This document shows, piece by piece, positions 8,436 through 14,583 of a DNA stretch of 14,715 nt; within the stretch, counting starts at the first letter, position 1; every line of letters starts with the position of its first letter. The translations under genes and the position numbers were made by a program. The notes beneath the pieces were generated by a model. The model saw only the letters and a program-made list of their open reading frames with translations, was not told the origin of the DNA and did no database searches. Origin of the DNA: Candidatus Omnitrophota bacterium (GTDB lineage Bacteria; Omnitrophota; Koll11; Zapsychrales; Fredricksoniimonadaceae); contig JAHFGF010000019.1 of NCBI GenBank assembly GCA_023247595.1, positions 1 to 14,715 on the forward strand. The letters are read 5' to 3'.

Positions 8436-9218
8436 ATGGAACACTCCAACATAGTCTTATGGTCGTTATGGACTGGCATTATTAGCGCGCTCGCAACTGG
8501 TTTGGGCGCCATTCCGGTTCACTTCGTTAAGAATAACTCCAAAATTTTGCGGGCCTTTTCCTGTTCCTTCGCGGGAGGCATGATGATATCGGCCTCTGTT
8601 TTTTCCCTGGCCCAAGAAGGCATTTCCCTAAAAAATAAAATTCCCGGCGCTCCTTATATGGTGATCCTGGGATTATTGCTGGGTTCTCTATTTTTTTGGT
8701 TCACGGAAAAAATCATCCGCACTCATGACACAAAATCCATTGAAGCCTCTCAAGGATTTTCCAAGCGAAGTCTTTTGATTTTTATTGTGATGTTTCTGCA
8801 TTCCATTCCGGAAGGAATCGCGATCGGAGTCGGTTTCGCGACGGGTAATCTGGAATTCGGACTGGTCATGGCCATTGCCATTTCGGTGCATAACATTCCC
8901 GAAGGCATTGCCATCTCTCTACCGCTCAAAGCGGAAAATGTTTCAACCGCGCGATGCGCTTGGGCCTCGATTCTCTCCAGCATCCCGCAGCCCATTATGG
9001 CGGTCCCTTCCGCTATTATCGCCTGGATGTTTGAACCGCTTCTTCCCATCGGCCTTGGTTTTGCCGGCGGTGCCATGATCCATATGACTGTTTCTGAACT
9101 TTTGCCCGAAGCCATTGAAGAAGGCGGCCACAGTTTGGCCGCGTGGGGCGTCATGCTGGGATTATGCACCATGCTTTTGATAACCAATCTATTGAGCCTC
9201 CTGCCGATTCCGCATTAA
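8436..9218 (+). CDS. ZIP-family divalent metal transporter (ZupT-like)
   Basis: This 260-residue inner-membrane protein of the ZIP family is likely to import zinc or other divalent metals such as iron or manganese. About eight membrane helices are visible. The two diagnostic metal-binding helices carry HSIPEGIAIGVGF (122-134) and HNIPEGIAISLPL (152-164), with H122, E126, H152, N153 and E156 as the binuclear-site ligands, and E221 follows in SELLPEA. The loop between helices 3 and 4 (about 95-112) is short and not His-rich. The ATG has an AAGGA ribosome-binding site 7 bases upstream. It is transcribed away from the phosphate operon. The same window carries an ABC metal importer, so the cell has two routes for divalent metals. 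Exact substrate cannot be read from the sequence. Confidence 0.92.
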   Translation: MEHSNIVLWSLWTGIISALATGLGAIPVHFVKNNSKILRAFSCSFAGGMMISASVFSLAQEGISLKNKIPGAPYMVILGLLLGSLFFWFTEKIIRTHDTKSIEASQGFSKRSLLIFIVMFLHSIPEGIAIGVGFATGNLEFGLVMAIAISVHNIPEGIAISLPLKAENVSTARCAWASILSSIPQPIMAVPSAIIAWMFEPLLPIGLGFAGGAMIHMTVSELLPEAIEEGGHSLAAWGVMLGLCTMLLITNLLSLLPIPH

Positions 9219-13506: not shown

Positions 13507-13770
13507 TCACGGCTGACAAATAAAAACATGCTCGTGGCATTCACCGCATTCTTTCATTTTGTGATGCGTTACCAAATCATTCCAATGCTTCTTGCGGTGC
13601 GGCGTCAAAACGCCTGTGCCCTGGCAAAACGGGCAGACATTATCAAGGGCAGCCAAAATGGCTGAACGGATAAATTCCGACCGATTTTTAATCCCGCGCA
13701 TCGCTGACTTAAGCGAACGATCCATCTTAAACGTGATAACCTCAGCGCTTTTATTTTTGACTTTCGGCAC
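13507..13770 (-). CDS. Ribbon-helix-helix protein with Cys/His zinc-ribbon-like tail, candidate metal-sensing regulator
   Basis: This 87-residue protein starts at GTG. The N-terminal half looks like a CopG/Arc ribbon-helix-helix DNA-binding domain: basic start, beta strand VITFKMD (11-17), helix, then NRSEFIRSAILAAL (29-42). The C-terminal half is rich in metal ligands: CPFCQGTG (C46, C49, a DnaJ-like CxxCxGxG), H58, H62, H69, H70, CGEC (C75, C78), H79, H81 and C85. The GTG is supported by an excellent GGAGGTGA ribosome-binding site that includes the stop codon of the metal permease three bases upstream, so the two are co-translated. Such a protein encoded with a metal importer is most simply its metal-responsive repressor; this is inference. 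A non-regulatory metal-binding role is the alternative. It resembles NikR only in the RHH half. Confidence 0.75.
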   Translation of the reverse strand: MPKVKNKSAEVITFKMDRSLKSAMRGIKNRSEFIRSAILAALDNVCPFCQGTGVLTPHRKKHWNDLVTHHKMKECGECHEHVFICQP

Positions 13771-13773
13771 AAC

Positions 13774-13781
13774 TCACCTCC
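13774..13781 (-). promoter_or_regulatory. Ribosome-binding site embedded in permease stop codon
   Basis: Minus-strand GGAGGTGA complements the 16S anti-Shine-Dalgarno sequence well. Its last three bases are the TGA stop of the permease gene, and GTG starts three bases later. It decides the GTG start of the ribbon-helix-helix gene and implies translational coupling. Confidence 0.85.
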
Positions 13782-14583
13782 GTAATAATTGACCGGCCCA
13801 ACACAACGAAAAAATCACAGCGCAGACAAAAACAATCGCCGCACCGGATGACAACCCGAAATAATAGGATAAATAAATGCCGGCTAAACCGGAAAAGACA
13901 GAAATTCCGACGGAAATCAAAAGCATATGTTTCAAACGGTTTGTCAGCATTCTAGCGCTTGCGGCCGGGGCCACTAATAAAGCGGTGGTGAGAATTGTAC
14001 CAACTGCCTGGATACCGGCAACAACGGTCAAGGCCAATAGAATCATGAGCGCGTAACGGATCGTTGCCAATGGAATGCCAATCGTCTTGGCATAGTTGGG
14101 ATCCACAGAAAAAAGTTCAAATTCCTTATAAAAAAGAACCACCACACCCAACACAATGATGGCAATGACCGCAATTAAAATCAAATCTTCTGTTGTGACC
14201 CCGAGGATATTACCGAAAAGCATGGACGATAAATCACGGAACGATTTTGTTTTACTCATCAAAAGAATACCGAAAGCAAACATCGCCGTCGGAAAAATAC
14301 CAATCGCGGTGTCTTCATACACATCTTCATTTTTGGAAATTAAACCAATTCCCAAGGCGGTAAGAATGGTCGCGGCCGCGGCCCCGATAAAAAGATGAAT
14401 CCCTGTCAGGTAAGCGACAACCAATCCGGGCAACGCGCTGTGCGACAAGGCGTGGCCGACATTTGACATCCTCCTTAAAACCACGAAAACTCCAAGGACT
14501 GCGCAAGTCACTCCAATGACAACAGCCGCCAGCATGGCTGAACAGATAAATTGATATTCAAGCGGTTCAGTTAACCAACGCAT
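13774..14583 (-). CDS. Zinc/manganese-type ABC transporter permease (ZnuB/TroC-like)
   Basis: This 269-residue inner-membrane permease of the ABC-3 family (ZnuB, TroC/D, MntB) imports zinc, manganese or iron with a periplasmic binding protein. About eight membrane helices are visible. Family landmarks are GVFVVLRRMSNVGHALSHS (31-49), FRDLSSMLFGNILG (115-128, cytoplasmic coupling region) and AGIQAVGTILTTALLVAPAA (189-208). The ATG overlaps the stop of the ATPase gene by one base and has an AGGAAAG ribosome-binding site. The ribbon-helix-helix gene follows after three bases. The binding-protein gene is not in the window and may lie beyond the right edge. Metal specificity is not readable from the permease; the Cys/His-rich neighbour leans slightly to zinc. 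Confidence 0.92.
   Translation of the reverse strand: MRWLTEPLEYQFICSAMLAAVVIGVTCAVLGVFVVLRRMSNVGHALSHSALPGLVVAYLTGIHLFIGAAAATILTALGIGLISKNEDVYEDTAIGIFPTAMFAFGILLMSKTKSFRDLSSMLFGNILGVTTEDLILIAVIAIIVLGVVVLFYKEFELFSVDPNYAKTIGIPLATIRYALMILLALTVVAGIQAVGTILTTALLVAPAASARMLTNRLKHMLLISVGISVFSGLAGIYLSYYFGLSSGAAIVFVCAVIFSLCWAGQLLRR

What the first reader, a model, noticed from the sequence alone, without database searches (positions are those of the whole stretch)
13507..13781. Ribbon-helix-helix protein with a Cys/His cluster, translationally welded to a metal importer: candidate metalloregulator
The protein pairs a CopG-like DNA-binding half with a compact tail holding C46, C49, C75, C78, C85 and six His, unlike Fur/Zur, MntR, ArsR or NikR architecture. 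Its ribosome-binding site includes the stop codon of the ABC metal permease, so it is made in step with the transporter. Together this suggests an autoregulatory metal sensor of a little-described kind. The motifs and junction are seen directly; the regulatory role is inferred.
Basis: partly seen in the sequence, partly recalled or inferred. Interest (0 to 1): 0.7.

Follow-up and report, generated by a model that had tools for sequence, protein, structure and literature searches.

The report
Ribbon-helix-helix repressor of zinc import
This small protein belongs to a large, apparently undescribed family that very probably switches off zinc import by binding a short paired DNA word in front of zinc-uptake genes in many little-studied bacterial phyla, a job elsewhere done by unrelated proteins such as Zur.

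Summary
Window 13770-13507 (-) encodes an 87-residue protein with a ribbon-helix-helix (RHH) N-terminus and a Cys/His tail. Its Shine-Dalgarno abuts the stop codon of an ABC-3 metal permease. In 73 of 80 loci the gene lies beside znuA/znuC/znuB-type genes on the same strand. New evidence is an operator, two palindromic heptamers GTAWTAC-N3-GTAWTAC, present with at most 2 mismatches upstream of 72 of 79 family genes against 0.18 in shuffles. It follows zinc genes, not only the regulator: it lies before znuA in the window's sister clade, where the regulator is last in the operon, and before a distant znuA in 7 of 8 genomes that could be judged. Six carriers without a detected Fur-family gene all have it. 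Best reading: a Zn-responsive RHH repressor, a functional Zur analogue, one dimer per heptamer. Operator and regulon are comparative evidence; DNA binding, zinc binding and the sign of the response are inferred. A 2019 review calls NikR the sole metal-regulated RHH protein.

The parts
13507..13770 (-). Gene of the RHH + Cys/His protein (87 aa, GTG start), candidate zinc-uptake repressor
13642..13743 (-). RHH DNA-binding half (residues 10-43): strand with near-invariant T13 F14 K15, helices 18-23 and 30-43, invariant N29 R30 S31, I34 R35
   Evidence: conservation; model; tandem relative; RHH_1 in 21 of 33 relatives
13516..13635 (-). Metal module (residues 46-85): C46-P-x-C49-x-G-x-G, H62-W63, H70, C75-x-x-C78, C85
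   Evidence: conservation
13777..13781 (-). Shine-Dalgarno GGAGG, 6 nt before the GTG start, abutting the permease stop TGA (13776-13774)
   Evidence: sequence
13774..14583 (-). znuB-type ABC-3 metal permease, 74% identical to the permease of sister locus L002
14583..14714 (-). C-terminal end of the znuC-type ATPase (cut by the window edge); its stop overlaps the permease ATG

Best explanation
The protein is a one-component metalloregulator that represses high-affinity zinc import. It acts as an RHH dimer. Each dimer reads one 7-bp palindrome GTAWTAC with its two-stranded ribbon (T13-F14-K15). Two dimers sit 10 bp (one helical turn) apart on GTAWTAC-N3-GTAWTAC, placed just after the -35 hexamer, so that RNA polymerase is shut out. 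The Cys/His tail binds Zn(II). With zinc plentiful the protein binds and shuts off its own operon and, in trans, detached znuA genes and probably a small exported His/Cys protein, once with a TonB receptor; with zinc scarce it lets go. Shown by comparison: family, neighbours, operator, position at promoters, presence at unlinked znuA. Inferred: that this protein is what binds the operator, that zinc is the ligand, and that the zinc-bound form is the binding form. In the window's own clade the operator should lie before znuA, beyond the right edge.
For: Linkage: 73 of 80 loci from many phyla, 71 with znu-type genes downstream and 2 upstream, same strand. Operator: 72 of 79 upstream regions at <=2 mismatches versus 0.18 in order-1 shuffles; 64 of 79 at <=1 mismatch with spacer 3 versus 0-2 at each other spacer 0-15; central bases AA 20, TA 19, AT 15, TT 15 (CT 2, AG 1), so each heptamer is its own two-fold unit. 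A TTGACA-like hexamer lies within 40 bp 5' of the site in 49 of 64, against 9.0 in shuffles. It follows the promoter: in L001 and L002, where the regulator is last, the site is before znuA. It occurs in trans: of 12 genomes searched for ZnuA, 8 have a distant znuA that could be judged and 7 of these have the site before it (G016, G021, G029, G041, G242, G269, G276); two more (G217, G249) were met through the site itself, which proved to precede a PF01297 gene. Co-occurrence in 199 Planctomycetota genomes: site in 5 of 7 with a strong family hit and 6 of 192 others, among them 0 of 6 with a weak RHH hit (Fisher 3.7e-6); without the two genomes already used to find the motif, 4 of 5. Site present in all six carrier genomes (of 44) without a detected Fur-family gene. 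Zinc type: the third substrate-binding-protein ligand is His in 70 of 71, as in E. coli ZnuA His207 (PMC1867320) and unlike Glu205 of PsaA (PMC3207923; aligned).
Against: No binding data. The motif was found on largely the same upstream regions in which it was then counted; the Planctomycetota and distant-znuA tests are only partly independent. Of 18 exact sites away from the regulator gene only 2 precede znuA and 4 the His/Cys protein; 11 are unexplained or inside ORFs and one precedes a protein without a Pfam match that looks like an outer-membrane protein. At one mismatch the background is high: 70 sites against 42 for the reversed pattern in 36 genomes, 18 against 12 in 8 genomes. G277 has the site at the regulator but not at its distant znuA; G016 and G242 each have a second ZnuA-type gene without the site. 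L060 has linked znu genes but no site; L050 has only a 3-mismatch one. Fur-family genes occur in 38 of 44 carriers. His at the third ligand is also reported for TroA, proposed to carry both zinc and manganese (PMC1867320), so it does not prove zinc.
Confidence: 0.82

Rival explanations
1. A Fur-family protein (a true Zur) binds the GTAWTAC pairs, and the RHH protein is an accessory or a regulator of something else.
For: Fur-family genes in 38 of 44 carrier genomes; in two Eisenbacteria genomes (G013, G015) a Fur-family gene ends about 0.2 kb from the operator, on the other strand from the regulator.
Against: All six carriers without a detected Fur-family gene have the site (draft genomes, so absence is not certain). 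The site tracks the RHH gene in Planctomycetota (5 of 7 versus 6 of 192); Fur genes were not counted in that set. It stands before the RHH gene in G025, which has neither a detected ZnuA nor Fur. Direct and inverted arrangements are about equally common, which fits two separate two-fold units better than one Fur-type palindrome.
Confidence: 0.07
2. The RHH protein binds the operator, but the bound metal is only structural; the protein is an autorepressor or answers another cue.
For: The four CxxC cysteines could make one structural zinc site, and an RHH protein with a zinc ribbon not described as a zinc sensor exists (CdrL, PMC7439475, passages read). Cys could also sense redox state.
Against: Seven near-invariant potential ligands (C46, C49, H62, H70, C75, C78, C85) are more than one four-ligand site needs, and the best-supported targets are zinc-import genes.
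Confidence: 0.09
3. The regulated metal is manganese or iron rather than zinc.
For: NCBIfam scores of the transporter parts are close for zinc and manganese models and none passes its cut-off.
Against: Third ligand His in 70 of 71 binding proteins; five near-invariant Cys in the sensor, soft ligands that suit Zn(II) better than Mn(II) (general knowledge).
Confidence: 0.06

Closest known systems
NikR (nickel-responsive RHH repressor)
   Same: RHH N-terminus plus C-terminal metal domain; governs a metal ABC importer; operator half GTATGA resembles GTATTA (PMC7055735, passages read).
   Different: NikR is a tetramer with a central metal-binding domain and operator GTATGA-N16-TCATAC. Here there is a 40-residue Cys/His module, 7-bp palindromes 10 bp apart, and zinc rather than nickel genes.
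Zur (Fur family)
   Same: Same presumed job: control of znuABC and extra znuA; TonB receptors are Zur targets in Caulobacter (PMC4176598, passages read).
   Different: Fur fold and a different operator (recalled); the window protein matches no Fur model in Pfam or NCBIfam.
AdcR/ZitR (MarR family)
   Same: Zinc sensor that controls zinc import (PMC6103462, passages read; PMC6372160, abstract in listing).
   Different: MarR fold; no sequence match.
Omega/ParB of pSM19035 (RHH)
   Same: One RHH dimer per 7-bp site; different orientations of the sites work alike (PMC9499535, passages read).
   Different: Contiguous non-palindromic WATCACW repeats; a partition protein; no metal domain (recalled).
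CdrL of haloarchaea
   Same: RHH plus C-terminal zinc ribbon (PMC7439475, passages read).
   Different: Double zinc ribbon, cell-division locus; no link to zinc import in the passages seen.
aCcr1 family (NF053762)
   Same: Only NCBIfam match, over the RHH strand and helices (E 8.9e-5).
   Different: 22.3 bits against a cut-off of 60; matches residues 11-40 only.

Membership tests
RHH (MetJ/Arc/CopG) superfamily | strand-helix-helix fold that dimerises through the strand | tested here: met
RHH superfamily | DNA sites made of short repeated units | tested here: met
   GTAWTAC pairs at 10-bp pitch, orientation-free; binding itself not tested
NikR | C-terminal NikR metal-binding domain | tested here: not met
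   no such match in Pfam or NCBIfam
NikR | operator GTATGA-N16-TCATAC | tested here: not met
   operator is GTAWTAC-N3-GTAWTAC
Zur/Fur | Fur-family domain PF01475 | tested here: not met
   no match at E<=1
Zur-like function | regulates zinc-uptake genes at several promoters | tested here: met
   operator at znu operons and before 7 of 8 distant znuA that could be judged; by sequence only
Zur-like function | zinc-dependent DNA binding | not testable with these tools
   needs protein
AdcR/MarR | MarR winged helix | tested here: not met
   no match at E<=1
DUF2946 (the small His/Cys target protein) | Pfam PF11162 above cut-off | tested here: not met
   E 0.013 and 6.6e-4 for two of six scanned, both below cut-off; a seventh has no match at E<=0.001

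The most novel reading that the evidence does not exclude
A third structural class of zinc-uptake repressor, besides Fur-type Zur and MarR-type AdcR, and the second metal-regulated RHH family after NikR. It is spread over Omnitrophota, Planctomycetota, Lentisphaerota, Zixibacteria, Deltaproteobacteria-type lineages, Spirochaetes, Eisenbacteria and others, uses one operator throughout, and senses zinc with a compact Cys5-His2 module, perhaps one structural CxxC/CxxC site and one sensory H62/H70/C85 site.
Probability: 0.75. Interest if true: 0.85.

Novelty: new variant of a known kind. Interest (0 to 1): 0.78.

Why it matters
Zinc-uptake control in bacteria is mostly read through Zur. This family gives a named protein, a predicted operator and a regulon that can be tested with one purified protein and one DNA duplex. 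It would break the statement that NikR is the only metal-regulated RHH protein (PMC7055735), lets anyone look for zinc-starvation genes in these genomes by scanning for GTAWTAC-N3-GTAWTAC near starts, and assigns a likely function to a family of up to thousands of proteins for which the sources seen here give only generic names.

Tried and rejected
A sequence search of solved structures found no relative (best E 0.88). The AlphaFold2 monomer of the window protein is modest (pLDDT 75, pTM 0.40) and Foldseek finds nothing significant (best E 6.6). No known fold was identified for the metal module, and it was not folded alone. Ligand geometry was not measured, because no model coordinates lie in the Python box. 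NCBIfam could not separate zinc from manganese transporters. PHROGs gave only weak CopG-type matches. DUF2946 as a regulon marker was dropped as a firm claim: matches are below cut-off, and in Caulobacter the DUF2946 gene is listed as down, not up, in the zur mutant (PMC4176598). One-mismatch genome hits as regulon members were rejected in general: background is high and many lie inside long ORFs. The promoter of the window's own operon could not be seen; no whole genome is held. The best 17-mers in the window (130 and 698, two mismatches) are taken as chance. My first scan for the SBP ligand used too strict a pattern and left 66 of 72 undecided; it was redone on an alignment of 71. My first motif count lost 8 of 80 loci to a strict protein pattern and 2 to short upstream DNA; one search replaced it.

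Literature searches for an RHH or CopG zinc-uptake repressor or this operator listed none; the library is open-access PMC only, and only listings and the passages named here were seen. A CopG-family gene changes mildly (0.54-fold) in zinc-depleted Paracoccus (PMC5387054); its relation to this family was not tested.

Full report
OBSERVATION. On the minus strand of the window, 13770-13507 is an 87-codon ORF with a GTG start. GGAGG at 13781-13777 is followed at once by the TGA stop of the upstream permease and, after GTT, by the GTG start. The permease (13774-14583) is an ABC-3 protein (PF00950, E 1.4e-76), 74% identical to the permease of the Omnitrophota locus L002. The piece of ORF before it is the C-terminus of a ZnuC-type ATPase. 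In an alignment of the window protein with 162 of the 165 relatives retrieved (those of 75-130 aa), C46, C49, C75 and C78 are in all 163 sequences, H62 in 162, H70 in 161, C85 in 160; H79 in 141, H69 in 93, H58 in 84, and H81 is not conserved. These are the best-listed hits, so conservation is probably overstated for the whole family.

NEIGHBOURS. Sixty-four of 80 loci hold an ABC-3 permease match, all 64 on the strand of the regulator. With znuA, znuC and znuB profiles built here, 73 of 80 have a znu-type gene on the same strand within about 3 kb: 71 downstream, 2 upstream. The two upstream cases, L001 and L002, are the window's sister clade, with order znuA-znuC-znuB-RHH. Of the seven unlinked loci, L007 and L076 lie near the ends of the DNA held and L009, L020, L038, L071 and L080 are truly unlinked. 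Pfam confirms ZnuA (PF01297) and ABC ATPases at sample loci. In 70 of 71 substrate-binding proteins the third metal ligand is His (the exception is one ORF of L051), as in E. coli ZnuA (PMC1867320, passages read). PsaA, a manganese protein, has Glu there (PMC3207923, passages read; aligned). This points to zinc without proving it; the first ligand position is His in only 46 of 71 on this automatic alignment.

OPERATOR. Upstream regions were screened for over-represented words. GTAATAC (either strand) is in 61 of 70 regions against 1.1 in shuffles, and pairs of it recur at a 10-bp pitch. A stricter count on 79 loci with at least 100 bp upstream used the best 17-mer against GTAWTAC-N3-GTAWTAC: 15 exact, 49 with one mismatch, 8 with two, hence 72 of 79; 50 rounds of order-1 shuffling give a mean of 0.18 of 79. 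Spacer 3 gives 64 loci at <=1 mismatch; each other spacer from 0 to 15 gives 0 to 2. The middle base of each heptamer is A or T almost independently (AA 20, TA 19, AT 15, TT 15, CT 2, AG 1), so each heptamer is its own palindrome GTA-W-TAC. A TTGACA-like hexamer (<=1 mismatch) lies within 40 bp 5' of the site in 49 of 64, against 9.0 in shuffles of the same stretches, and 3-6 bp away in 32 of the 49: a repressor's place. The seven misses are L001, L002, L009, L038, L050 (three mismatches), L060 and L071.

THE MISSES ARE INFORMATIVE. In L001 and L002, where the regulator is last, the site stands before znuA: GTAATACTTTTTAATAC and GTAATATTTTGTATTAC. L009, L038 and L071 have no znu genes beside the regulator, and in their genomes (G016, G041, G269) the site stands before a distant znuA (G016, where it lies about 30 bp before the ATG). 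One search covered 12 genomes for ZnuA: in two (G002, G247) znuA lies beside the regulator, G025 has none, G023 is broken at the contig end, and of the remaining eight, seven have the site before a distant znuA (G016, G021, G029, G041, G242, G269, G276) and G277 does not. G016 and G242 also have a second ZnuA-type gene without a site. Two further genomes were met through the site itself, which proved to precede a PF01297 gene: G217 and G249, the last of the exact extra sites to be opened.

SPECIFICITY. In 199 Planctomycetota genomes a strong family hit (E<=1e-30) occurs in 7 and a weak RHH hit in 6. The near-exact site GTAWTACNNNGTAWTAM occurs in 5 of the 7 and in 6 of the other 192, including 0 of the 6 weak ones (Fisher 3.7e-6). 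Two of the 7 (G002, G025) were among the genomes used to find the motif; without them it is 4 of 5. In G025, G075, G137 and G203 the site is 42-53 bp from the family match; in G217 it directly precedes a ZnuA ORF. Of the six sites without the family, four lie inside long ORFs and two between ORFs. In the 80 carrier genomes, 18 exact sites lie away from the regulator gene (sorted by coordinates) and all 18 were opened. Two precede znuA (G269, G249). Four precede a 118-129 aa exported-looking His/Cys protein (L126, L127, L130, L189). One precedes a protein without a Pfam match that looks like an outer-membrane protein (L183). Eleven are unexplained or inside ORFs. The His/Cys protein also follows one-mismatch sites in L137 (the window's sister genome), L139 and L140. 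The seven share one His, one Cys and R-x-P-P, and two resemble DUF2946 below cut-off. In L126 it is followed by a TonB receptor (PF00593, E 4.6e-57). TonB receptors are Zur targets in Caulobacter, though its DUF2946 gene is listed as down in the zur mutant (PMC4176598, passages read).

WHO BINDS THE SITE. Fur-family genes are found in 38 of 44 carriers examined (36 of the 80 carriers were not examined), so a Zur could coexist. But the six carriers without one (G009, G011, G012, G025, G028, G043; draft genomes) all have the site, and G025 has regulator and site with neither ZnuA nor Fur detected. The arrangement, 7-bp units usable in either orientation, is how the RHH protein Omega uses its heptads (PMC9499535, passages read). 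The near-invariant T-F-K strand fits an operator that hardly changes across phyla. I put the RHH protein as binder at about 0.9.

MECHANISM. The most likely scheme is Zn-bound tail, dimer-dimer binding on two heptamers, and occlusion of the promoter, released on zinc shortage. That zinc is the ligand follows from the targets and from seven near-invariant Cys/His. That the zinc form represses follows from the logic of known uptake repressors such as Zur. Neither is shown. A split into a structural CxxC/CxxC site and a sensory H62/H70/C85 site is a guess.

NOVELTY. A 2019 review calls NikR the sole metal-regulated member of the RHH family (PMC7055735, passages read). A 2018 review of zinc regulators lists Fur, MarR, MerR and ArsR types, and the words ribbon and CopG do not occur in its main text (PMC6103462, passages read). 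Searches of the held open-access library listed no RHH zinc-uptake repressor or this operator. It works like Zur and is built like a small NikR, but is a member of neither.

Noticed in passing
L001:1250-2005, L002:4402-5160, L003:7124-7831: The ZnuC-type ATPases of this Omnitrophota group begin with a Cys/His motif (YCGHKHAHP, YCRHTHTHP and similar), perhaps a cytosolic metal-binding leader.
   Followed up: no
L129:1396, L131:3060, L188:2603: An exact operator about 180-200 bp before a GPP34-type gene (PF05719 in the one scanned, L131; the other two near-identical by eye) in three Lentisphaeria genomes; link to zinc unknown.
   Followed up: partly
L126, L127, L130, L137, L139, L140, L189: A small exported-looking protein with a conserved His, a conserved Cys and C-terminal R-x-P-P follows the operator in seven genomes; once with a TonB receptor behind it.
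   Followed up: partly
L165:2168-2614 (-): A weaker-matching Planctomycetota RHH protein with CPLCxGSG but a different tail and no near-exact operator in its genome (G205): a separate subfamily.
   Followed up: partly
P0121, P0122: Natural tandem (single-chain) versions of the regulator, 173-174 aa.
   Followed up: yes
G013:C205:6354-6692 and G015:C56:17196-17534: A Fur-family gene ends about 0.2 kb from the RHH operator, on the other strand from the regulator, in two Eisenbacteria genomes.
   Followed up: no
window 8436-9218 (+): A ZIP-family metal transporter (PF02535) in the same window; no 17-mer within two mismatches of the operator lies near it.
   Followed up: partly
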